A DNA stretch of 40,556 nucleotides, taken from positions 1 through 40,556 of IMG/VR virus record IMGVR_UViG_3300032053_000183; one strand, written 5' to 3'. Shown here in pieces: positions 2,133 to 18,324 of the stretch. Source of the stretch: a virus. The notes under the pieces were generated by a model that saw only the letters and a program-made list of their open reading frames with translations, was not told the DNA's origin and ran no database searches. Numbering within the stretch: the stretch's first letter is position 1; each line of letters opens with the position of its first letter. Made by a program: the position numbers and the translations under genes.

Positions 2133-3062
2133 TTATACTCCCCACGCTGCATCGGTAAGACCATCGTACCGAGCCAACGCTAATGTATTGAACAAGGCCA
2201 GTGATACGTACCACTTAATCCTTGTCCTTGTGGCATCCTTGGTTTCGAGGTCACCAAGGTCTTTGACTTGGATGCCTCCATTCTGGCAACCTGCGAGCAG
2301 CTTCTCACCGAGCTTTGCAGCGAAGATGGAAGTGCAAGCGCCGCCAATCTTGAGTGCATAGGTCGAGCTTGCAATGGTTTCGGTTTGCAGAATCCAGTCG
2401 GTGCAGATGATGGGAACGCCACCGAAGTACATTATCGGTTTGCCCATATCGTCACGGCCGTTGATAGTTACTGGACTCTCATTGCGCTCTGCATAGTCGC
2501 TGAGATTGTCACGGGTGGTTCTGCTCATGATGAGATAATCGGGACCATTGGGTTTTACCATCCTGAGTAGAGTCCTGAGTTTCTTGATGGAACCGGCTGC
2601 GCCAGTAGTAGTCGAACCGGCGTTCACTACCATTGCAGAGTTCACCAGCTTGTGAAGGCCGTTGAAACTCTTTGGGTCAGTTGCTACGTCACCGTAAACA
2701 AACGTGTCCTCGAAAGTGCGGGCGATTGCTTTGCTCTTGAGGTCGGTGACTATGGCTTTGAGATTCTGGACATTGCTCCGAGTCTGTCGAAGGAACTCGT
2801 CAACATCGGCATCGCCACCGAGGATTTTCAGGGTGGCAGTTGCCTGTACGAAGGTGGGAGTAGATTCAATCCACGTGTCATTGACATCGTAGAAACCTGC
2901 TCCTGGAAGTGTATTCTCCTGATTATAGGTGAGTCCGTTGCCAATAATGTCGATGAAGGGCAACTTCTTGAGAACCTCTGACTCTGTAATTATGGTCTCA
3001 ATCACACCTTTCAAGAGAATGTCATTGGACAGTTTTGCGGCTTCTGTAAGTAAAAGCGCCAT
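2133..3062 (-). CDS. Major capsid protein (HK97-fold type)
   Basis: 309 residues from ATG 3062 behind AAAGGAG. The N-terminal part (LTEAAKLSNDILLKGVIETIITESEVLKKLPF) is the helical arm typical of HK97-fold capsid proteins of this length. It is followed by NTLPGAGFYDVNDTW and the LKILGGDADVDEFLR spine-helix region. The C-terminal P-domain and A-domain strands include PIMYFGGVPIICTDW and end in LFNTLALARYDGLTDAAWGV. The scaffold-like gene lies directly upstream and no maturation protease is seen, so assembly probably uses a separate scaffold. The sequence is consistent with phage major capsid proteins and the assignment is firm at fold level. Confidence 0.9.
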   Translation of the reverse strand: MALLLTEAAKLSNDILLKGVIETIITESEVLKKLPFIDIIGNGLTYNQENTLPGAGFYDVNDTWIESTPTFVQATATLKILGGDADVDEFLRQTRSNVQNLKAIVTDLKSKAIARTFEDTFVYGDVATDPKSFNGLHKLVNSAMVVNAGSTTTGAAGSIKKLRTLLRMVKPNGPDYLIMSRTTRDNLSDYAERNESPVTINGRDDMGKPIMYFGGVPIICTDWILQTETIASSTYALKIGGACTSIFAAKLGEKLLAGCQNGGIQVKDLGDLETKDATRTRIKWYVSLALFNTLALARYDGLTDAAWGV

Positions 3063-4245: not shown

Positions 4246-7200
4246 TTAGCTATTCCAGTACCTTAGTATCCTGTCGATATTTGGATACTGTGTGCGATAC
4301 TGGTCTTTCATTGTGCGAACTCGGCGCAAAGCTAAGAGTGCTTGTGGACTCCTTGCTAAGTATGCCTTTTGGATTACTGGAGAAAATTGTTGTGCGTATT
4401 CGATTAGCTGCTTTATGTCAGGCGGATATTGTGCAAGGACTTGGTCTTGGATGTCATAGTATGGGCGAACCTTCTCCATGTCATTGCTGTATGTGGCTCG
4501 AAGCGGAGTCTTGTAGCGGTCTTTCCTTGACTGGATATAAGCTGCTTGTTCGGGAGTGACGGTTGCCAAGAAATTCTGCTCTGCGGTGCGGTAGCCGTCA
4601 AAGTTAAATGCACCAGCTTCGTCTGTGTATTTGGAAGAGTCCAACTCGTCATAGTAGGCATCTAGCTTTTGGTCATCGGGATGACGGATTGGTGTATCCC
4701 AACCAAGCATCTTGCGATATGATTCCCAATCGGCATCTGTCTTAGGAGCTTTGCTGTAGAGCTTTGTGGCCTCGTCAACTCGATTTTTGTATTCGTCATA
4801 ATTCTGACGGTAGAGAGCTTTCCACTCTCTCGGAGTAATTTTGCCTGTTCGTAGTGAGCGGTCAATAGCTTGCTCTACATAGAGTCGGGAACCTTTATCT
4901 GGTTTACTTGGGTCAGACCCATAGAGTAACTTCTCACGCTCCAACTTTAGCTTGATATAGTCTTGCCAAATCGGTCTGCTCTCGGCAGTAAGTCCTGCTG
5001 GTCGAATATAGCGCCAGAGCTTAGCTGCGGGAATATCCTTATATACGGCTTCAAGCTGGTCTTGGCGAAGTCCTGTAAATGGACTCTCATTCAAGTCTCG
5101 ATATGTGGTTCGCTGTTCTTTAGTGAGACCCATATCCTTTGCTTTCTGATTCATTGCTTGGAAGCGAGCTTTCTCTGTGGGATTCATTGTCTTTACTGCG
5201 CCACCGGGAATACTCCAAAGTTGACGAGTGTAGTATTTATTCCAAGCGGCTTGTATAACTTCTGGAGTTGCAGTTTGAGGATTGAAGCCCATGTCAACGA
5301 TTGTCTTTTCCACTTCCCTCTTTGAGTATTCAGCAACGGTTTCACCATATACTGCTCGTAGGTAAGCATCGAATGGCTGATTTAAGGCATCAGCAACACC
5401 AGATACTAACTGACCTGCTAATCCAAATTGGGGAAGTTTAAGACCTGCTACGGCTTGCAGCCATCTTTGCTGAGGGATTATTACTTGTGGTTCTGCTGTT
5501 AGAGCGGTGTTACCAGTCTGACCAGCAATTATGCGCTCTACCATCATGGAGGCGATTTTCCATTGTGGACCAAGACTGACTCCCAGATTATTTCTCAGGA
5601 AGTTGTCACCCTGCTCTAGCCCACCTGCTCCTGCTGCATTGAAACTCTTGGACATGGGATTTGTAAGCTGCCACCACATGGTAGATTGTAGTGGATTGTA
5701 CCAGTAGTCAGAGGGTTTTCCATCTAGTCCCGGAAGATTGATAGCACCAAATAATCTACTTGGAGTATCGGACTCATTAGCTTCCTTCTGCATACTGAGA
5801 GTTTCGATACCAAGTCCCGGATGCTTAATAAGCTGAGTGGTATAGTAGGGTATGCTGCGACTTGGGAAGAACCAGAATGGTGCACCCATCCCTGTCATAA
5901 ATTCATCGAGATTTGTTCGCTGTGCGTAGTTGCCGTATGTGCCATGGGTGGTATTCAAAGCAGTATTGCTGGCTTGATTGTGTATGGTCTTGGACTGTAG
6001 GGCGATGGACTCCTTAGCAGATATGACCTTTTCACGGAAATCATCGAGGATTTGGTTCTTGGTCAAACCCACCTTTGCAGGGCGTTCCATGACGGTGGCT
6101 ATTCCTGCTGTGGACTTGCCTACTGGTTTGTAGCCGAGTTTGGTGTACCATGCTTCAAGTTGCGCCTGAGTCATATTAGGATTTTTTAATGATGGTTTAT
6201 AGTTGTTAAAAACCAAATACTCCAAATCTTGGTCTAAACCACGATGTTTAAGATTTTTATAACTGGCAAATATATCCTTTATATCAAATTCCTTGGTTAA
6301 GATTTTGGATTTAGGAACTCCTCCGCTTGTTAACCAGTCAATATCATCTGACCAAGATATTATTTTATTAGCTTCTGAGCGTGGACTTTTTTGTAACCTA
6401 TATAAAGTAATTTTTCCAGTTGGATGAATATCTCTCAAAACATCTTGAGTGTTCTGATATATGATGGAAGCTCTATCTGGATATTTCTCAATTTTATCTA
6501 TTAAATTTTGTCTTGTTATTCCACCACCTTTGGTAGCCACATCTTTGACGGCTGCATCTAATGGGTTATCTACCCAATCAAGAGGTTTTGCTGGGTTTCT
6601 TAGAGGCTGTGCGTGGACTTTGACAGCGACTCCGTGCTTGTCCGCTATGTCATGTATCTCTTTCAGAACGGCTGAACCTGAGCCGCTCTTTGGAGTATTC
6701 GATTTTATTACGTCAATTTCGAAGCCATTTTTATTGATGGTGTAGTTGATTTGGACTCCCTTGTATTCTGTATTGTTGGGAATCAATGCACCTAATTCTG
6801 TCTTTAGTCCAACTAGGTCATTGGCAGCAGAGGGAATGCCCACATTATGCCTCTTGTCCCACGCATCAACTATGCGGTCTTCCCAACTTTTTAGTGCCTT
6901 TAACTGTTCTTGTAGGAAATCCATCTGTGTCAGAATTTTTCCATCTGGGCCAGCTACCTTTGCTAAATCTCCAGCATCCAAACCCATTGCCATTAGTTTA
7001 TCTTGACCCACCTTGAACCATCTGCGCTCCTGAACCTTATAGTAAGCGTTCCATAAGTCGTCATTGTTCGGAGCAAGTACCGACTTCAAACCTTCTGCCA
7101 CTTCGGGGAAGTCAGATTGTATGCTCATAATATAGTTGTCCCAAGCAGACTGAAGTTTAGCTGGGTCTTTGGCAAATCTTATTGTTTCAGCGGTATTAAA

Positions 7201-9483
7201 TGTTCGACCAACAAGTTCTCTACCAGAAATTCGTGCTACCTTGTTTATTTCTGTACTGGTTCTATGCCAAGCATCCAGTTCTGCTGGACCGACATTGCCT
7301 TCCAAAGCTCTGGTAGTCATTAGAACTTCCGCAATATCCTCTAGTTCTTGGCGACTGGCTACATGGGCGTCAAATATAGCTTGCTGAAAATCCGTCAAAC
7401 TACCTTTGATTAAATCCTTGGACTCTTTCTCCACTACTCTGTCAGCTTTGAAAACGTTTATAGCTTTGGTAAGCATACTACGATTTTCAATGGAAAGTTT
7501 AGATTTGGCTAAATCTCTATACGCCTTCATTTCTCCAAGCATTTTCTGCTTCTGATAGCTCTCTACTCGCTGTGGCAGAGTTCGCTTCAATTCTTCAAAT
7601 AGATTAGTGATTCCACGAAAATCACTCCTTGCCCATAGACGTGGCAAATCATATTTGATTTTGTCTTGGATTGCCATAGGAATACCTTTTTCCAAATTAT
7701 TCATAGGTCGGGTAATAGTTAGAGTTTTGTTCTTCTGCACTTCTGCCATAGCTTTGACAAAATCATCTGTATTGCTGGATATCGCCAGTTGACCCAACTG
7801 TTCTGCAAGTTTGGGTTCTACTTTACCAGCAAGGTCTTTCACTAATGCTTGTATGTCCGACAATGCCTTTGCTGTTTCTGGGCTACCTTTCTCCATCAGT
7901 GTTTTTACAATAGAATCGTAGTGATGGAAGTATGTATTGACCAGAGACATATCATCTAAATAAGCGGCTAAAGTAGTGGCTGGCATCTTATGCCCTCTAG
8001 CCAAATTACCTGACAAAGCCTCGGATATATTGCCAGCAGATGGAGTCCTTGCAAATATAGAACCTGCCTCTGGTTGCTTATTAGCCAACCTATCTCCAAT
8101 GCTCACTATCTTTCTCTGTATATCAATTGGATGCTCCGAAAGATTTATTACTTTGGAAAATTCAGTGATGTCGAATATTGGACTTATACCGTCAAGTATC
8201 TGACGCACATTATTTTCCACTACTTGTTGCAGGACATAATAGGGAGTTTGTAGAACCATTGGGCGCCACCAGTTATAAAGTCTCTGTGCAAGTCCGAACA
8301 TACCGGGAGCTTTTATACTAGACTTAACTCCAAGTTGTCGGGTTACTATATCCTGCAACTCTTTACTCATTCCTACCATGGCACTTTTAGGGTGGGTAGC
8401 TGAGAACTTAATCCAAACATCCATATCCATTTTGTCTAGATTTTCCTGTAGATGCCCCAATGCTCTTTTCTGTAATGGGCTTTGTATTGTACCAAGGAGT
8501 TCTTGGTCAGGTATACCCATACGGAAGTCCTCAAGGATTTGGTTTAGCGGCTTACCCTTCTCTGCACCAGCACGCTCTAGGCTAGCCAGAGTATCAAAGG
8601 TATGGGTTGCTGTGTTGCTTGCGATGGTTCTATTGGATTCCTCAAAAGGTTTGCCCCATTTACCTGTGAAGAATTTACCTGTGGCACCAAATTCTGCCCA
8701 GCTGGTTTGAGGAACTTTGAATGGTAGAGCCTTCAATGCCGCTCCAGCACCTTTTATGGGAAGATTGGCTGCCTTCACAAACATATCTTCTGGTACTGTT
8801 CCAAGTGCGTGTATGCCACCAGCAAGTCCTTTATAGCCAGCTTTCAATGCAGCTTTCTCAGCAATGCCGGGAAGTCCCCAACCTATGTAACTGATTGGGT
8901 CAACACCCATCTCCATGGCAGTTCGGACAATCCAAGGAATCTGCTGATTTTCTTCCCACATAGCAGAGCGTTCTTCTGGAGATACATCGAATGTACTCCT
9001 TCCTTGTAAGCCTTCTCGAAGCTGTGACGAGAATGGTTGTGCGAGACCCATAGCTGCGGGTTTTATCCAACTGTTCTCGTGCTGCCCATACATATCTATG
9101 ATGGGCTTTATTATTGGCTGCTCTGCTATAGTCCTCAGTATTGGTTGCTTTCCTACTGCTTCCATTAGATTTGCTACTGGCTTCAGAAGAGGCTGTTCGG
9201 CAAGCCATGGGATTGGATTCTCATATGCACTTGGCAGCTTTGTAATGTCAGGGATATTTGGTTCGGGAACTGACACTGGCTTACGGACGTCAATGACCGG
9301 CCCCGCTACGGCTGAGGCAAATTCGGGGCCGTACTCATTTGTTAGTCTGGTTAAGGCTGCGGTATAAGAATCCTGTGGAAGTTTTCCTAGATATTCTTGA
9401 TATGTGGATAGGTACTTCTCCCTCTCCTCATCGGGGAGTCTGCCTAATGCCCCCATTATGTCTGACTGTTGTGGTTCAGCCAT
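4246..9483 (-). CDS. Giant internal virion protein with ART-like and GNAT-like domains
   Basis: 1745 residues, the largest gene, starting at ATG 9483 six bases after the previous stop. It is mostly helical and Gln/Lys/Glu-rich, without signal peptide or clear membrane helices, as expected of a polyvalent protein packed in a short-tailed virion and injected. Around residues 905-965 a GNAT-like half (INKNGFEIDVI...GSGSAVLKEIHDIADKHG) is seen. Its likely second half, QAQLEAWYTKLGYKPVG, lies at about 1105-1140. Between them is an ADP-ribosyltransferase-like segment with ITLYRL (R1029), SWSDD (S1043/S1045) and DLEYLVF (E1088). The C-terminal third contains repeated Tyr-rich helices. No peptidoglycan hydrolase motif was recognised. 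Domain calls rest on motif reading only. Confidence 0.88.
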   Translation of the reverse strand: MAEPQQSDIMGALGRLPDEEREKYLSTYQEYLGKLPQDSYTAALTRLTNEYGPEFASAVAGPVIDVRKPVSVPEPNIPDITKLPSAYENPIPWLAEQPLLKPVANLMEAVGKQPILRTIAEQPIIKPIIDMYGQHENSWIKPAAMGLAQPFSSQLREGLQGRSTFDVSPEERSAMWEENQQIPWIVRTAMEMGVDPISYIGWGLPGIAEKAALKAGYKGLAGGIHALGTVPEDMFVKAANLPIKGAGAALKALPFKVPQTSWAEFGATGKFFTGKWGKPFEESNRTIASNTATHTFDTLASLERAGAEKGKPLNQILEDFRMGIPDQELLGTIQSPLQKRALGHLQENLDKMDMDVWIKFSATHPKSAMVGMSKELQDIVTRQLGVKSSIKAPGMFGLAQRLYNWWRPMVLQTPYYVLQQVVENNVRQILDGISPIFDITEFSKVINLSEHPIDIQRKIVSIGDRLANKQPEAGSIFARTPSAGNISEALSGNLARGHKMPATTLAAYLDDMSLVNTYFHHYDSIVKTLMEKGSPETAKALSDIQALVKDLAGKVEPKLAEQLGQLAISSNTDDFVKAMAEVQKNKTLTITRPMNNLEKGIPMAIQDKIKYDLPRLWARSDFRGITNLFEELKRTLPQRVESYQKQKMLGEMKAYRDLAKSKLSIENRSMLTKAINVFKADRVVEKESKDLIKGSLTDFQQAIFDAHVASRQELEDIAEVLMTTRALEGNVGPAELDAWHRTSTEINKVARISGRELVGRTFNTAETIRFAKDPAKLQSAWDNYIMSIQSDFPEVAEGLKSVLAPNNDDLWNAYYKVQERRWFKVGQDKLMAMGLDAGDLAKVAGPDGKILTQMDFLQEQLKALKSWEDRIVDAWDKRHNVGIPSAANDLVGLKTELGALIPNNTEYKGVQINYTINKNGFEIDVIKSNTPKSGSGSAVLKEIHDIADKHGVAVKVHAQPLRNPAKPLDWVDNPLDAAVKDVATKGGGITRQNLIDKIEKYPDRASIIYQNTQDVLRDIHPTGKITLYRLQKSPRSEANKIISWSDDIDWLTSGGVPKSKILTKEFDIKDIFASYKNLKHRGLDQDLEYLVFNNYKPSLKNPNMTQAQLEAWYTKLGYKPVGKSTAGIATVMERPAKVGLTKNQILDDFREKVISAKESIALQSKTIHNQASNTALNTTHGTYGNYAQRTNLDEFMTGMGAPFWFFPSRSIPYYTTQLIKHPGLGIETLSMQKEANESDTPSRLFGAINLPGLDGKPSDYWYNPLQSTMWWQLTNPMSKSFNAAGAGGLEQGDNFLRNNLGVSLGPQWKIASMMVERIIAGQTGNTALTAEPQVIIPQQRWLQAVAGLKLPQFGLAGQLVSGVADALNQPFDAYLRAVYGETVAEYSKREVEKTIVDMGFNPQTATPEVIQAAWNKYYTRQLWSIPGGAVKTMNPTEKARFQAMNQKAKDMGLTKEQRTTYRDLNESPFTGLRQDQLEAVYKDIPAAKLWRYIRPAGLTAESRPIWQDYIKLKLEREKLLYGSDPSKPDKGSRLYVEQAIDRSLRTGKITPREWKALYRQNYDEYKNRVDEATKLYSKAPKTDADWESYRKMLGWDTPIRHPDDQKLDAYYDELDSSKYTDEAGAFNFDGYRTAEQNFLATVTPEQAAYIQSRKDRYKTPLRATYSNDMEKVRPYYDIQDQVLAQYPPDIKQLIEYAQQFSPVIQKAYLARSPQALLALRRVRTMKDQYRTQYPNIDRILRYWNS
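6181..6540 (-). other. AT-rich insert encoding the ART-like domain
   Basis: By hand count 111 of 360 bases are G or C (31 percent), against roughly 45-55 percent in flanking lines on both sides. The island covers residues about 982-1101 of the 1745-aa protein. That matches the stretch from ITRQNLIDKIEKYPDRAS to FNNYKPSLKNPN, which holds the R-S-E motifs. The reading frame is intact across both edges, which suggests an in-frame domain acquisition from an AT-rich source. Confidence 0.7.
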
Positions 9484-9488
9484 AGTAT

Positions 9489-11216
9489 CTACCTACCATA
9501 AGAAGGAGTTATCTGCCTAGAGGCTAACCCCGGCATCATGCGCTGCTGCATTTCAAACCAGTCCTCAGGGCTTACTCCCATCCAGTTCAGAGCACCAAGT
9601 ATTTGCTCTTGTTCGGATGGTAGGAGATTATTCCACCATTGCATAGAGGGATGAGATAGAGGGACTCCTGAGAATTTTTCACCCGGAGCAACTTCGCCTC
9701 CAGTCAGAGCGGCTACGGCTTCTGGAGTTAGTTGTCCCATCTGTGCCCAGTATTTATATGGGTCAGCAGCGTACATGTTGGCCATATTCTGAGTAGAAGC
9801 AGCTAGTTCTCTCTGCCGCATCAGTTCATTCTGTTGGGCAGTTTGTGCTGCTTGTGCTTGGTTATTCATCTGTGCAATGCGTTCATTGGATTGAGTCTGA
9901 GCCATTATTTCTGCCATGCGGTCTCTAGCAACTTGGGCTGCATTTGTACCACCTTGGCCTTCTGCTCCTCCACCACCTGATATTTGCCGCCACTCACTTC
10001 CATTCCAGAAGAACCTACCATCAGGACTAATTTGCAAACCACTTGCTCCTTGTCCTCCAGTATTATTTCTAGCGGCGTCTAATATGGCTTTATCCGCAGC
10101 TTGTTGAGCTGCCAAATCGGCTGCTGCCTTGTCTGCTGCGGCTTTATCCGATGCAGTTTTGTCCGCTGCGGTCTTTGCAGTCTCGGCTGCCCCAACTCCA
10201 AACCAGTCAGGAAAGCCACCTCCTATAGAGTTTACTGCTCCTGCACCTGCTAGTCCTGTGGGAACCGCAAGTTTTGCCCAGTTGGGGAGATTAGTTGGAC
10301 CCATACTTGAACTCTTTAACCAGTTACCTGCACCGCTGAGCCATCCCGGAACTTGACCTGCGGCGGCTACGGTTGGTTCAGCCTTTCCTGCGAGTGCTAA
10401 CAAGTCCTTCCCTTGGCTTCCAAGTTGGGCAGCCTTCTGTGCATCGGTCATGGCTTCCCATAAAAGTCTTCCACTAGATAAATTGCTAGACCCAAATGAC
10501 CGAACTCCGCCTATTCCCGGCAAAGACTGTGCCGCCATTAACCAAGATTCAGGACCACCAGTAGGATTGCCACTTGTATTAAATCCGGGCGTGTTTGAGC
10601 CTCCGGGCGGTACATACAAGCCGCCTCCGGGTTTAGTCAAACCAGCAAACCAGTCTCCCATGCCTTGCCAGTTCGGCGTGACCTGCGCTTGCTTGGCAAC
10701 AGGAACGGCATTGAAGCCGCCTTGAGCAGTTTGTTCTGCGCCGCCATATTCCTCACCTGTTATTTGCTGATATAGGTCTTGGGCTCCAGGCTGCTGCATT
10801 GTATTAACTGCTTGTTGGCTCAACTGCGCTGGCTGCTGAGGTTGAAAGATGTTTTGTAGCCAACTCGGTTGCTCAACTATCGGCTGATTCATCATTGGCG
10901 TCGGAGGCCGATATGCAGCTGGTTGATTATAGTTCTGGAATTGACTTAGCTGATTTCTTGTAGCTTGTACGTTGCTGATAGGCGTTGGAGGTCTAGGAGT
11001 GGGCAAAGTAGGAGGCTTGGGAGTTGGTGCTCGTAATGCTGCTGGTGTCTGAATAGTATTGTAGCCTCCAGAACCAGTAGGAGTCATGCCAAGATATTCA
11101 TTTCCAGTTATTTTCTTATAGAGACTTTGGGCTCCGGGATTCTGCATAGTGTCGAACGCTTTTTGGTTCAACTGAGCTCCAGCTTGAGGTTTGAATAAAT
11201 CATCCCACCATGCCAT
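9489..11216 (-). CDS. Virion protein with internal duplication and coiled coil
   Basis: 575 residues from ATG 11216 behind AGGAGGG. A module of about 55 residues occurs twice: residues 3-58 (WWDDLFKPQAGAQLNQKAF...TMQNPGAQSLYKKITGNEY) and about 118-172 (WLQNIFQPQQPAQLSQQAV...TMQQPGAQDLYQQITGEEY), joined by a Pro-rich linker. A Gly/Pro-rich middle, a short hydrophobic stretch (LAVPTGLAGAGAVNSIGG) and an Ala-rich coiled coil (AADKTASDKAAADKAAADLA) follow. There is also a DGRFFWNGSEW motif and a Gln/Ala-rich helix. It lies between the portal and the giant internal protein, so it is probably ejected with the DNA or lines the portal. I know of no enzyme motif in it. Confidence 0.83.
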   Translation of the reverse strand: MAWWDDLFKPQAGAQLNQKAFDTMQNPGAQSLYKKITGNEYLGMTPTGSGGYNTIQTPAALRAPTPKPPTLPTPRPPTPISNVQATRNQLSQFQNYNQPAAYRPPTPMMNQPIVEQPSWLQNIFQPQQPAQLSQQAVNTMQQPGAQDLYQQITGEEYGGAEQTAQGGFNAVPVAKQAQVTPNWQGMGDWFAGLTKPGGGLYVPPGGSNTPGFNTSGNPTGGPESWLMAAQSLPGIGGVRSFGSSNLSSGRLLWEAMTDAQKAAQLGSQGKDLLALAGKAEPTVAAAGQVPGWLSGAGNWLKSSSMGPTNLPNWAKLAVPTGLAGAGAVNSIGGGFPDWFGVGAAETAKTAADKTASDKAAADKAAADLAAQQAADKAILDAARNNTGGQGASGLQISPDGRFFWNGSEWRQISGGGGAEGQGGTNAAQVARDRMAEIMAQTQSNERIAQMNNQAQAAQTAQQNELMRQRELAASTQNMANMYAADPYKYWAQMGQLTPEAVAALTGGEVAPGEKFSGVPLSHPSMQWWNNLLPSEQEQILGALNWMGVSPEDWFEMQQRMMPGLASRQITPSYGR

Positions 11217-11217
11217 T

Positions 11218-11499
11218 TTATATTCCCTCCTTTTGGTCTTGCTTTAGTTTCATTAGTTCCATGCGAGCCATCCAGTCACATATTGGGCAGGGTTCTTGTT
11301 CGCCCTCGGTGTGGTAGATGTCCAGTAGAGCAGCTATCTCTTGTTCGGATAGTGCATCGTATGGCTTGTTCAATATCTTCCATGGCGCATCTGGTATCTG
11401 CATAGTCTGGCTTATCTCGTCTTTGAACATTGCGATGGCGCCAAGAACAGGTCTTAGGGTTTCAGCGACTAGTCGTTCCAAGTAAGTTTTTTCTGCCAT
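11218..11499 (-). CDS. 93-residue late protein with CPIC motif
   Basis: Starts at ATG 11499 with GGAG nine bases upstream, two bases after the portal stop, and ends two bases before the next start. It is mostly helical (KTYLERLVAETLRPVLGAIAMFKDEIS, then SEQEIAALLDIYHTEG) with one CPICDW pair near the C-terminus that could bind metal only as a dimer. Its place between portal and internal virion protein suggests an assembly factor or small internal protein. No family is recognised. Confidence 0.75.
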   Translation of the reverse strand: MAEKTYLERLVAETLRPVLGAIAMFKDEISQTMQIPDAPWKILNKPYDALSEQEIAALLDIYHTEGEQEPCPICDWMARMELMKLKQDQKEGI

Positions 11500-11500
11500 C

Positions 11501-13393
11501 TTACTGCGCTCCGGGATAAGGATTTGAGCTTGGGATTCCTTGTACTGCCATTGAGCCTCCTGTACTTGGCTTGCCTTGACCAGCTATGAGGGCAGCCATC
11601 TGCTCTGGACTACCCGGCATCGGAGGTCTGAAGCCTCCCATATTCTGCCTTGCCATAGCTGATACTGCTTGTGCCATTCCCTCTCCAGATGCTAGAGGCT
11701 GGCCGGGGATGCCTTGACCTGGCTGTTGACTCTGCATGGGCGGCAGTTGTCCACTCTGTAGAGCTTTAATTTTGCCGAGTCGAGCCATCTCTCCGGCCAA
11801 CTCTTGCGAAACTAATTGAGCCACTACCTGTCTGATGGCTGGGTCATTGCGGAGCTTTTCAGCTTCCACTCTGATGTCCTCAGCTTCGGGGTCAATGTGG
11901 CTCATGTATCGCCTTCGTGCTGTGGCAGAAGAAATTATGCCCGTCTTGACAAGGTTTTCCATGTCTGCGTGTCGTCTGGCTTCTTCTTCTGCGGATACGG
12001 GTGTGAACTCCACAAATGTAGTATAATGATGCTTGATTTTCTTCCTCTCTACTCGGAAGTCGAATTCTTCATTGGGAGTCCTTGCCCAGATGTGAAAGTC
12101 CTCTGGGACCACTCTCTCTGCAATCTTGGTGCAGTTGCTCATGACCTTGGCAGTTGAGAGTTGCAGCTGCTCCATGATACTGTCATAGCGAAGTCTGGCT
12201 TCCGATATTACCTGCGCTCTGTCGGTGCCCGACCTTACGCCAGTTTCTCCCAGACCTCTGACAGACCTCGGTGCACCAGAGGCAGCGAGTATCGAGCTTG
12301 TATAAGCCAAATGCTGCATGACGAACTCAGGCGGTGGAGCTTTGACGTATTCCTCCATTGTCACACCTGCGGGTTTTTCATAAATCTTCCCATACTTCAT
12401 CTTTATCGTGGTCAGAGCAGCGGCTCCTGGACCAGAGACGAATGTTATGGGCCAACTCTGCGATTTCAAAACGATGTTATAAACTGAGTAGGCAAAGGAT
12501 TCTGAACGAAGTAGCGGGAGCAGATACCTGACCAATCCCACTGCCTTTATCTCAGACTTGGAAGATTTGCTCTGATTGCCAAGACCTGAGTAGCCAACGA
12601 CATACGGGACAAATCCGTAATCATGCTCAATTATTCCCTCTTTGTCACCGGCAGTTAGCATGGGTTCGTTGTTGACGTAGATGGCTCTCCACTTCTTGTC
12701 AATATATGAGACTTGCACCACATCTTGATAGTTGCCCGCACCTGCTGTGGCGACTCCTACAACGGGGGCAGTCCAGTTCGACCACTCTGCCCTTGCTTGA
12801 CTGATGGTCTTTGTCTCCTCAATAATCATATAGTTGCCAGATGGGTCAGGATAGACATTGCGTGGATGAACGGAGCGAATACCTATTGGCAGAACATCGT
12901 AGAGTTCGCCATTGTAGATATCCATTCTCTCCTTGAACTCATCGTCCGATTCACCTTTCTCTTGTTCTGGCTCTTCTGGCACCTTGTTCTCGTCAAAGAC
13001 GGTTTCAAAACACCACATGCCGTATAAGCAGCCATGCTTTGCGGCAGTGCGCCATGGACTTATATCCGACTCTATCTTGGTTCTATAGAACATTGCCATG
13101 TCGAATTTGCGCAGCATTTCTGCTTGGTCTTTTGCCACTGCATCAGTCCCTCGCATGGGTCTAAAGAAGCGTGCATAGACAGTGGATATGTGATTGGTGC
13201 CAGCATCAACTATGTCCCTAACTGTGGGCAGGACTATTCCATCCTCTTTGTACTCCTCTGGCAGTCCGAGTTTGTCTCGAAACTGCATTTCGTAGTAGAG
13301 GTCGTCTTGGTCAAAGGCGATATTTCTGGCACTATACAGGCTCTTTAGGCTCGCCAGTTTGCCAAATATCTCGGACTTCGTAGGTTTGTCCAT
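11501..13393 (-). CDS. Portal protein
   Basis: 630 residues. ATG 13393 is chosen because GGAGG lies nine bases upstream, even though the gene then overlaps the preceding one by 62 bases. The layout fits podovirus-type portals: an N-terminal helical wing (RDIVDAGTNHISTVYARFFRP), an insertion with an acidic loop (EEPEQEKGESDDEFKERMDIY), and a stem/clip region ending in YPDPSGNYMIIEE. A long helix then includes LVRYLLPLLRSESFAYSVYNIVLKS, and the crown region is Gln/Met/Pro-rich. It forms the dodecameric ring through which the terminase pumps DNA. It lies directly after the large terminase block, as expected. Confidence 0.9.
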   Translation of the reverse strand: MDKPTKSEIFGKLASLKSLYSARNIAFDQDDLYYEMQFRDKLGLPEEYKEDGIVLPTVRDIVDAGTNHISTVYARFFRPMRGTDAVAKDQAEMLRKFDMAMFYRTKIESDISPWRTAAKHGCLYGMWCFETVFDENKVPEEPEQEKGESDDEFKERMDIYNGELYDVLPIGIRSVHPRNVYPDPSGNYMIIEETKTISQARAEWSNWTAPVVGVATAGAGNYQDVVQVSYIDKKWRAIYVNNEPMLTAGDKEGIIEHDYGFVPYVVGYSGLGNQSKSSKSEIKAVGLVRYLLPLLRSESFAYSVYNIVLKSQSWPITFVSGPGAAALTTIKMKYGKIYEKPAGVTMEEYVKAPPPEFVMQHLAYTSSILAASGAPRSVRGLGETGVRSGTDRAQVISEARLRYDSIMEQLQLSTAKVMSNCTKIAERVVPEDFHIWARTPNEEFDFRVERKKIKHHYTTFVEFTPVSAEEEARRHADMENLVKTGIISSATARRRYMSHIDPEAEDIRVEAEKLRNDPAIRQVVAQLVSQELAGEMARLGKIKALQSGQLPPMQSQQPGQGIPGQPLASGEGMAQAVSAMARQNMGGFRPPMPGSPEQMAALIAGQGKPSTGGSMAVQGIPSSNPYPGAQ

Positions 13394-13612: not shown

Positions 13613-15148
13613 TTAAAATCTCCTGTTGCTGAATGTGGCATAATCCCCTACTGCCAGTGTACTACCTGTGAAGTGTTGTGGGCTGACGGCGATGGCACCC
13701 ATAAACGCCATTGCTCGGTCGTCATGTATCTTGCTTATTATCTTGCCGTCTTTGTAGACCATAGCCTTGAGTTGCCGAATCAGTTTGCGGTCATAGCTTA
13801 CTATTGACCCATTCCTTATTGCAGATATGGTGTCACCTACCATTCCCGCCTTATTGCTGTGATTAGTGACCCAGCCCCACTTTCCTGTTAGCTCGCCATT
13901 AGCCGACCTCTCAGGATATAGATTCTTGTAAACGATGTCATTGACCAGATAGTTTAGGACACCAATGCCGACTCCATTCCTCTCTACTATCAACAGGGCA
14001 TTGTTGTATTTGGTCGCAACATCTGCCACTTTATATGCAAATGACTTTTGCTCCATCTTGCTCTGCACAGCGGCGACTTGTTCAAGACCGCCTGCCGTTA
14101 GCTTCAAGACTACACCATCATGTGGGTCACTTCCTGTTGCACCTTCGCCGCCACATGGGTCAACCCAGAATATATATCTCGCCCCAAGTTCAGGTTCTCG
14201 CCAAATCTCAAGTATCCCGTCTTGCTTGATTGGGTCACGGGACTTGAGACTCCAAGATTGAAGCTGCTCATCCACTTCGCTGAACACTTTGTCTGGAGGA
14301 CCAAGCCAGCAAGATTCCAAATCCTCGATGTATTCTTGCGGAAACAAGTTGCCTTTATTGTCGCTCCGCATACTCCTCATCTTCCAACGCTTCCATCTTA
14401 TCTGGTCTTCATTCAAGCCTTTCTCAAGCATGAGTTCCATCTCTTTCCCCGTGAAGTCCAGCTCTCCACGTTCTTCTTCTGCTACCAACTCACTGCCTCT
14501 CTCAATCTTATAGTCGTCTGCGAGCCACCAGTAGAAAGGAACTAGCTTGTAGTCGGACTCGCCATTTATGCAGTCCTGTACGGAAGAATAAAAATAGCCA
14601 CTGTCGCCCAGTGGAGTAGATTCCCTTACCAAATACCCCGACATCGGCACCGCCTCAGCCAAACCACTTAGGAGCTTTTCTGCATCCGTATAATGTGCCT
14701 CTTCCGAAATATGCGCTCGATGAACTGTGTCGCCTCTCCCAAATGCTCGCTGTCCTGCGGTGCCGATATACATAGTGCTGCCATTCTCGAATACTTTTTC
14801 GTTGTCCGAATCATGAAACATCTTGCTCTGCATGTCTTTGGGCAAATGCTTGTGATAAATGTCCACCTTGTCGAGCAGTCGCCTTGTGGCATACTCCTCA
14901 TGGCTGACTATTGCTACCACTAAGCCCGGTATGAGTTGTGCCTCGATGAAGAACAGAGCCAGAATTGCCGTACTAATACCTTCCTGACGGCTCTTACACA
15001 GAATCATTCGGTGAGACCAATTCGAGAACAGCCATTTCTGCGCCTTGTTCAGCTTGAATCTCTGCATAGTAGCATCCTTGTCTACTATCCACAGCAGATT
15101 TTCGACCAAGGCTAACTTGGTTGCCAAGTCTGTATTAGGCGCAGTCAT
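13613..15148 (-). CDS. terL: Terminase large subunit
   Basis: 511 residues from ATG 15148 behind AAGGAG. The ATPase domain shows the terminase-type Walker A segment CKSRQEGIST (residues 51-60) and, in the Walker B position, RAHISEEAHY with E149/E150 as candidate catalytic acids. A coupling-type motif follows (ESTPLGDSGYFY). The C-terminal RNase H-like nuclease has YIFWVDPCGGEG (D330), LLIVERNGVG and KIHDDRAMAFMGA as its metal-binding acids. It cuts and translocates DNA through the portal. Both catalytic domains look intact. The neighbouring upstream genes are a membrane protein and the small-subunit candidate. Confidence 0.93.
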   Translation of the reverse strand: MTAPNTDLATKLALVENLLWIVDKDATMQRFKLNKAQKWLFSNWSHRMILCKSRQEGISTAILALFFIEAQLIPGLVVAIVSHEEYATRRLLDKVDIYHKHLPKDMQSKMFHDSDNEKVFENGSTMYIGTAGQRAFGRGDTVHRAHISEEAHYTDAEKLLSGLAEAVPMSGYLVRESTPLGDSGYFYSSVQDCINGESDYKLVPFYWWLADDYKIERGSELVAEEERGELDFTGKEMELMLEKGLNEDQIRWKRWKMRSMRSDNKGNLFPQEYIEDLESCWLGPPDKVFSEVDEQLQSWSLKSRDPIKQDGILEIWREPELGARYIFWVDPCGGEGATGSDPHDGVVLKLTAGGLEQVAAVQSKMEQKSFAYKVADVATKYNNALLIVERNGVGIGVLNYLVNDIVYKNLYPERSANGELTGKWGWVTNHSNKAGMVGDTISAIRNGSIVSYDRKLIRQLKAMVYKDGKIISKIHDDRAMAFMGAIAVSPQHFTGSTLAVGDYATFSNRRF

Positions 15149-17712: not shown

Positions 17713-18324
17713 TTAGCTTTGTGTTTCTTCGGTGGTAGCTTCAACGGGCATTTTGTACTCAAAACCTGTGAGATTGTGAGCCTTCACAAATTCATCAAAC
17801 TTTGCTTTTGTATCGGCTTGTGTGTGAGGATATTTGAAGGCTGCTGTAGTCAATTCTGCTGCTGTAGCATTTGCCTTTATGAAGGCTGTAACTGATTGCT
17901 CCTGGCCTTGGGCATCTACAATCTTAACATGTCCCTTACCCACTTTGCCAGTACCAGTTCCCTTCGAAGCAAGTTTTGTGATCTTGTTGATATTGACTGA
18001 TACTTTGCCTTCACTATCGACAACGTACACAACTGTTTTGACGGGCTCTTTAATGAGGTCAGCAATCTTATAGGCTTCAAGTAATTTTGAGATTGTAGTT
18101 CCTATTGTGATGCACTGTTCCTTGACTGCGTTTTGAGCTTCATCAATCTTTGCCTTGTCAAATTCTGCATCGATTTTGGTCAAGTCATTCTTTGCTTTGA
18201 GGTACTCGCTCATTAGCTTGTCAAAATCATCGGAAAACGGCTTCAAACCTTTGAGCTTTGCTTGCGATTCCTTGACTGTATTTTCCAGATTAGCTTTGCG
18301 TTCCGTAACTTCAATAACTGTCAT
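17713..18324 (-). CDS. 203-residue leftward protein, candidate regulator
   Basis: Starts at ATG 18324 with GAGGG nine bases upstream. The N-terminal 75 residues form a charged coiled coil (NLENTVKESQAKLKGLK... LMSEYLKAKNDLTKIDAEFDKAK). The middle holds beta strands (VKTVVYVVDSEGKVSVNINK), then a Gly/Lys-rich basic linker (LASKGTGTGKVGKGH). A C-terminal small domain (VKIVDAQGQEQSVTAFIKAN) follows. The coiled coil plus basic linker resembles nucleoid-associated proteins, but I recognise no family. It faces away from the early operon, has its own promoter and is enclosed by inverted repeats. That fits a regulator of the early/late switch, as inference. Confidence 0.78.
   Translation of the reverse strand: MTVIEVTERKANLENTVKESQAKLKGLKPFSDDFDKLMSEYLKAKNDLTKIDAEFDKAKIDEAQNAVKEQCITIGTTISKLLEAYKIADLIKEPVKTVVYVVDSEGKVSVNINKITKLASKGTGTGKVGKGHVKIVDAQGQEQSVTAFIKANATAAELTTAAFKYPHTQADTKAKFDEFVKAHNLTGFEYKMPVEATTEETQS

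What the first reader, a model, noticed from the sequence alone, without database searches (positions are those of the whole stretch)
6181..6540. ADP-ribosyltransferase-like domain inserted into a GNAT-like domain of a giant internal virion protein
The 360-base stretch has 31 percent GC by hand count against about 45-55 percent around it. It encodes residues about 982-1101 with R1029 (ITLYRL), S1043/S1045 (SWSDD) and E1088 (DLEYLVF), the R-S-E order of arginine-type ADP-ribosyltransferases. The flanks GSGSAVLKEIHDIADKHG and QAQLEAWYTKLGYKPVG look like two halves of one GNAT-like fold. The insert fits as a recently acquired, in-frame toxin-like domain delivered with the DNA, by analogy with T4 Alt. 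Family knowledge: phage-injected ARTs modify host RNA polymerase or other targets.
Basis: partly seen in the sequence, partly recalled or inferred. Interest (0 to 1): 0.85.

Follow-up and report, generated by a model that had tools for sequence, protein, structure and literature searches.

The report
Nested enzyme insert in phage protein
A very large phage protein, probably carried in the virus particle, contains a swappable block in which a probable ADP-ribosyltransferase sits inside a loop of an acetyltransferase-like domain; a sister phage lacks the whole block, so these probable host-modifying enzymes come and go as a module.

Summary
A syntenic sister phage (L002) has the same giant gene (1575 aa, 37-53% identical) but lacks P0001 residues 882-1138 cleanly and in frame. 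The variable unit is therefore a 257-aa cassette, not only the 120-aa AT-rich piece. Its outer parts look like two halves of one GNAT fold: the first matches the phage acetyltransferase AcrVA5 (only PDB hit, E=0.0036); the second aligns, weakly, to the following GNAT model positions. The AT-rich core (989-1105) ends exactly where the second half begins. It resembles R-S-E ART-like domains of phage MuF and giant head proteins (HMM E=4e-5 on one sequence, ahead of 200 shuffles; hhalign 52% against at most 1.4% for 79 decoys). The ART fold is not confirmed: the models were too weak (pLDDT 48 and 60). The arginine-type motif (ExE) is not met; it reads D-L-E. GNAT plus ART in phage polyvalent proteins is already known; nesting one inside the other was not found in the literature searched. 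Verdict: new variant of a known kind. Packaging and catalysis are inferred.

The parts
4246..9483 (-). Giant protein P0001 (1745 aa), probable virion or polyvalent-type protein, encoded between a 575-aa gene and a 287-aa gene just ahead of the major capsid protein
   Evidence: ORF; gene context TerL/MCP by PHROGs; homologue of 1575 aa in L002
6070..6840 (-). 257-aa cassette (aa 882-1138), absent cleanly and in frame from the sister phage L002
   Evidence: Alignment A1: V881 and T1141 nearly adjoin in P0002 (HEV|PTTKNKLLD); tblastn pieces 555-891 and 1137-1745
6592..6771 (-). N-terminal half of a GNAT-like fold (aa 905-964), beta-beta-GxGS-helix-beta5
   Evidence: phmmer: AcrVA5 6iuf_A is the only PDB hit, E=0.0036; GNAT HMM E=7.5e-7 on P0001; single-sequence model gives E-E-H-E here
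6169..6519 (-). Low-GC segment (aa 989-1105) that holds the core of the ART-like domain (homology 1004-1072, envelope 986-1092)
   Evidence: ML segmentation; MuF-ART HMM and hhalign
6397..6399 (-). R1029, candidate ART strand-1 arginine (TLYR)
   Evidence: Invariant with L087, L088, L094
6355..6357 (-). S1043, candidate ART serine (SWS)
   Evidence: Invariant with L087, L088, L094
6220..6222 (-). E1088, candidate catalytic glutamate; residue -2 is D1086 (D-L-E)
   Evidence: Invariant with L087, L088, L094; L087 and L088 have Q-x-E
6070..6168 (-). C-terminal GNAT half (aa 1106-1138: QAQLEAWYTKLGYKPVG...VMERP), helix 4 and following strands
   Evidence: Aligns to GNAT model positions 150-171, after the N-half (92-134); 5 of 1000 shuffles score as high, 2 of them at that place
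2133..3062 (-). Major capsid protein (context)
   Evidence: phrog_212 E=1.8e-68
13613..15148 (-). Terminase large subunit (context)
   Evidence: phrog_2 E=8.7e-17

Best explanation
Residues 882-1138 of the giant protein are an exchangeable effector cassette of polyvalent-protein type: a RimI/AcrVA5-like GNAT acetyltransferase whose beta5-alpha4 loop holds a nested R-S-E-type ADP-ribosyltransferase-like domain of separate, AT-rich origin. Most likely the giant protein is packaged in the virion and enters the cell with the DNA, where the ART (using NAD+) and possibly the GNAT (using acetyl-CoA) modify host proteins early in infection. Shown: the in-frame cassette and its absence in a sister phage, the composition boundary, and sequence similarity to GNATs and to MuF-linked ART-like domains with R, S and E aligned. 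Inferred: that the core has the ART fold, packaging, delivery, catalysis and host targets.
For: Clean presence/absence between syntenic sister phages. GNAT halves: AcrVA5 as sole PDB hit, E=0.0036 (6IUF identified as AcrVA5 in PMC11021501); the N-half profile retrieves ordinary GNATs among its matches in 34 of 399 genomes; an HMM of those proteins hits P0001 at E=7.5e-7 and aligns the C-half co-linearly. ART: two-sequence HMM of MuF-linked domains scores P0001 at E=4e-5 (Z=1), better than 200 shuffles; with the pattern residues masked, 2 of 2000 shuffles and no natural decoy do better; hhalign probability 52% against at most 1.4% in 79 decoys. The low-GC segment ends at aa 1105, the last residue before the C-half. 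Precedent: GNAT typically next to ART in phage polyvalent proteins (PMC5512222); Tunturi_5 gp273 carries Nudix, ART-PolyVal (3 stretches) and an AcrVA5-like GNAT.
Against: No Pfam, PHROG or NCBIfam ART family matches the core; PF18760 does not match. The MuF comparison set was fetched with a motif shared with the window, and with those residues masked the signal is modest. That set itself is called ART by motif, MuF fusion and a weak DRAT match (E 0.056-0.085) only. AlphaFold models are weak (pLDDT 47.8 and 60.0) and Foldseek gives nothing significant. No peptide evidence of packaging. Only one homologue of the giant protein was found.
Confidence: 0.58

Rival explanations
1. The inserted ART is the working enzyme and the GNAT is a broken or merely structural remnant that serves as a docking site in the giant protein.
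For: The usual R/Q of the acyl-CoA loop is replaced (P-K-S-G-S-G where AcrVA5 has K-R-Q-G-I-G); the insertion interrupts the loop next to the CoA and substrate cleft (knowledge of the GNAT fold).
Against: GxGS, helix 3 and the C-half (WYTKLGY...M.R) are retained; loops tolerate nested domains.
Confidence: 0.25
2. The core 989-1105 is not an ART but an unrelated AT-rich insertion, and the R-S-E order is coincidence.
For: No family hit; weak models with no significant structural match; comparison set chosen with a shared motif.
Against: Similarity extends beyond the motif (IYQNTQDVLR against LYEETQEALR; KEFDIKDI against EEIPIDRV; DLEYLVF against QFEYVIL); masked test and decoys.
Confidence: 0.27
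3. The cassette is ancestral and was lost in L002; only the ART within it is foreign, or its composition simply drifted. This is compatible with the mechanism above and differs only in the history.
For: With two homologues, gain and loss cannot be told apart; GNAT halves have ordinary composition.
Against: L002 has its own unique about 136-aa insert at another place, which fits module gain; the AT-rich boundary is sharp.
Confidence: 0.35
4. The giant protein is not packaged and acts late, in virion assembly; the enzymes act in the producing cell.
For: No homology to known ejection proteins; location in the head gene cluster also fits an assembly factor.
Against: Size, position and enzyme domains match the polyvalent-protein pattern (PMC5512222).
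Confidence: 0.2

Closest known systems
Phage polyvalent proteins with GNAT and ART domains (Iyer et al. 2017, PMC5512222)
   Same: Very large phage protein, late/head gene setting, RimI-type GNAT and ART in the same polypeptide
   Different: There the ART is described as a neighbour, of the H-Y-D clade (Pfam PF18760); here an R-S-E-type ART-like domain lies inside the GNAT, and PF18760 does not match
AcrVA5, GNAT anti-CRISPR acetyltransferase (PDB 6IUF)
   Same: 60 residues of the GNAT N-half align without gaps, E=0.0036
   Different: AcrVA5 is a small stand-alone protein (96-residue chain in 6IUF) without an insertion; only the N-half match is statistically clear
MuF-linked C-terminal ART-like domains (L087, L088; L088 has PF04233)
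   Same: TLYR...SW[ST]xD...EY motifs, upstream helix YxxTQxxLR; HMM and hhalign support
   Different: 20-25% identity; C-terminal in MuF proteins rather than nested; Q-x-E there, D-x-E here
T4 Alt
   Same: Analogy: ART packaged and injected with phage DNA (described in PMC5512222)
   Different: No sequence comparison made here; Alt is not known to be nested in a GNAT
Tunturiibacter phage Tunturi_5 gp273 (L102)
   Same: AcrVA5-like GNAT in a giant phage protein with ART domains
   Different: ART-PolyVal domains lie beside the GNAT; Nudix also present

Membership tests
Polyvalent protein (phage) | Very large multidomain protein combining enzymatic domains of different activities | tested here: inconclusive
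   1745 aa with GNAT-like and ART-like domains; GNAT clear, ART moderate
Polyvalent protein (phage) | Encoded with head and packaging genes | tested here: met
   Between TerL (phrog_2) and MCP (phrog_212)
Polyvalent protein (phage) | Packaged and delivered with DNA | not testable with these tools
   Needs virion proteomics
GNAT superfamily (RimI/AcrVA5-like) | Motif A strand-loop-helix with GxG/A | tested here: met
   GSGS; AcrVA5 E=0.0036; GNAT HMM E=7.5e-7
GNAT superfamily (RimI/AcrVA5-like) | Helix 4 and strand after beta5 (YxkxGF motif B) | tested here: inconclusive
   Right model positions but weak; 5 of 1000 shuffles as good, 2 of them at that place
R-S-E ADP-ribosyltransferases | R, S(xS/T) and catalytic E in order, in family alignment | tested here: met
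   R1029, S1043, E1088 invariant in the 4-row alignment, though the R and S motifs were used to fetch the rows
R-S-E ADP-ribosyltransferases | Split beta-sheet ART fold with NAD pocket | tested here: inconclusive
   AF2 pLDDT 60, pTM 0.55; top PDB match 4eyy IcmQ (NAD-binding, ART-like, from my own knowledge) at E=0.28, not significant
Arginine-specific ARTs | E-x-E in the ARTT loop | tested here: not met
   D1086-L1087-E1088
ART-PolyVal (PF18760) | Match to the family model | tested here: not met
   No match in the record at E up to 10

The most novel reading that the evidence does not exclude
A bifunctional nested enzyme: an NAD-dependent ADP-ribosyltransferase built into the beta5-alpha4 loop, beside the active-site cleft of a phage acetyltransferase, so that one injected polypeptide performs or couples two modifications on the same host target, and the pair moves between sister phages as one in-frame cassette of a giant virion protein.
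Probability: 0.3. Interest if true: 0.68.

Novelty: new variant of a known kind. Interest (0 to 1): 0.5.

Why it matters
If true, it shows how phages upgrade injected effector proteins: a foreign enzyme is placed inside another enzyme's loop, and the whole module is swapped between relatives. The natural with/without pair (window and L002, 26 of 37 queried genes matching) makes a direct comparison with and without the module possible in principle. It also points to an R-S-E-like ART branch shared by MuF proteins and giant head proteins that current family libraries do not recognise.

Tried and rejected
Pfam, PHROGs and NCBIfam scans of the whole protein, the insert and its pieces: no significant family. 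tblastn and pattern searches for relatives of the insert in phages, plasmids, viral and genome contigs: none; the single genome hit (L083, Clostridium) lies in what reads as an aspartate-semialdehyde dehydrogenase gene, a chance match of 31 residues. AlphaFold without relatives: pLDDT 47.8, with meaningless matches to ribosomal S3 and others. AlphaFold of the ART with four rows: pLDDT 60, no significant match. Search of 399 Bacillota genomes for the ART: none. PHROG 4776 and 16619, which match the MuF-ART set, do not reach the window. 'Arginine-type' rejected because the motif is DxE. The C-half of the GNAT is only weakly supported when taken alone.

Full report
WHAT WAS CHECKED. The window is a whole IMG/VR virus record of 40,556 bases. 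The 1745-aa ORF on the minus strand, 9483..4246, is uninterrupted. The 360-base stretch 6181-6540 is 30.8% GC and lies in the lowest-GC region of the entire record (minimum 0.300 at 6167-6526; next lowest elsewhere 0.331 at 18279). A likelihood segmentation inside the gene places the foreign-looking stretch at 6169-6519 (residues 989-1105) with LLR 17.0, against a maximum of 11.7 in 200 codon shuffles. R1029, S1043/S1045 and E1088 are as stated.

A NATURAL EMPTY SITE. The capsid protein led to a sister phage, L002 (IMGVR_UViG_3300028837_000158; capsid 81% identical). It is syntenic over the whole genome: 26 of 37 queried window ORFs match, at 38-81% identity. Its version of the giant gene has 1575 aa. 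Residues 4-550, 555-891 and 1137-1745 of P0001 align at 37%, 39% and 53%, and the full alignment closes from V881 to T1141 with only one or two ambiguous residues between. L002 carries its own insert of about 136 aa at another place (P0001 about 551). The giant protein diverges faster than many of its neighbours, which are 70-80% identical. Gain and loss cannot be told apart with two homologues; no third was found.

THE OUTER PARTS: ONE GNAT IN TWO HALVES. Against the PDB the N-half has a single hit, 6IUF, E=0.0036 over 60 ungapped residues; this entry is AcrVA5, a prophage-encoded N-acetyltransferase (PMC11021501). A profile of the N-half with AcrVA5 and two phage relatives has matches in 34 of 399 Bacillota genomes, nearly all of which read as ordinary GNATs. 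An HMM made from those proteins, none of them the window, hits P0001 912-952 at E=7.5e-7 for a one-sequence search; the N-half alone scores better than all of its 1000 shuffles. The C-half, which played no part in fetching those GNATs, aligns to model positions 150-171, the helix-4/strand region that follows the N-half match (92-134). Taken alone it is weak: 5 of 1000 shuffles score as well, 2 of them at that place. In the ordinary GNATs the beta5-to-helix-4 link is a few residues (TTNDNxxALRFYQKRGF); here about 140 residues lie between. The AT-rich segment ends at 1105 and the C-half begins at 1106.

THE CORE: AN ART-LIKE DOMAIN. No family library recognises it, and PF18760 (ART-PolyVal) does not match. 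A motif search of viral contigs (LYR-x-SWT-x-[DE]) gave L087 and L088, C-terminal domains of which L088 follows a MuF domain (PF04233, E=7.6e-8), and L094, an ORF of at least 1589 aa. L088 has a weak match to DRAT, an ADP-ribosyltransferase family (E 0.056-0.085). An HMM of L087 and L088 alone scores P0001 at E=4e-5 for one sequence; the best of 200 shuffles is 0.0047. Because the motif was used for fetching, the shared motif residues were masked: the fragment still ranked above 1998 of 2000 shuffles and all natural decoys. hhalign gives 52% against at most 1.4% for 79 decoy segments. Similar features beyond the motif are IYQNTQDVLR against LYEETQEALR, and DLEYLVF against QFEYVIL. R1029, S1043 and E1088 are invariant in the four-row alignment. 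The residue two before the glutamate is D, so the E-x-E signature of arginine-specific enzymes is absent.

STRUCTURE. Two AlphaFold jobs were possible. The whole cassette as one sequence gave pLDDT 47.8 and no meaningful match. The ART with four rows gave pLDDT 60 and pTM 0.55. The fold is therefore neither shown nor refuted.

HOW IT LIKELY WORKS. The gene lies among head genes: terminase 15148..13613 and capsid 3062..2133 are identified, while the proteins between them are unassigned. Phage proteins of this size that carry GNAT and ART domains are described as polyvalent proteins, injected with the DNA; the literature says one GNAT family in them typically has an ART as neighbour (PMC5512222). 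Tunturi_5 gp273 is such a case here: Nudix, three ART-PolyVal stretches and an AcrVA5-like GNAT. By analogy the cassette would modify host proteins early in infection. Phage ART and GNAT enzymes are both known to act on host RNA polymerase (PMC7824862), but no target can be named here. Packaging, activity and targets are inferences.

VERDICT. The GNAT N-half is well supported, its C-half weakly, the ART moderately; nesting is the simplest reading of the boundaries, and the whole cassette is what differs between sister phages. Known kind (polyvalent GNAT plus ART), new arrangement. The literature search for a GNAT with an inserted ART found no earlier description, within an open-access library only.

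Noticed in passing
L002 (L134) about 2062-2481: The sister giant protein has its own about 136-aa insert, absent from the window, with no clear family (best PHROG E=0.014); the giant protein looks modular at more than one site.
   Followed up: partly
window about 9070-9195 (aa about 96-138 of P0001): Imperfect repeat 'EQPLLKPV...EQPIIKPII' with about 25 residues missing in L002; looks like a small internal duplication.
   Followed up: no
L094:3-4769: Another giant phage ORF (at least 1589 aa, 5' end open) begins with the same type of ART-like domain (MuF-ART HMM E=2.4e-4 among all ORFs).
   Followed up: partly
L102 (PP885688.1 225802-230271): Tunturi_5 gp273, annotated only as MutT/NUDIX hydrolase, is a polyvalent-type protein with Nudix, three ART-PolyVal stretches and an AcrVA5-like GNAT.
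   Followed up: partly
L088:4364-4732 and L087:111-482 (PHROGs 4776 and 16619): Two PHROGs (one of unknown function; one a 1440-position minor head protein) match the MuF-ART domains at the SWT region and may hold unannotated ARTs.
   Followed up: partly
window 9489-13393: The 575-aa and 630-aa neighbours, one of which should be the portal, match no Pfam or PHROG family although conserved at about 71-74% in L002.
   Followed up: no
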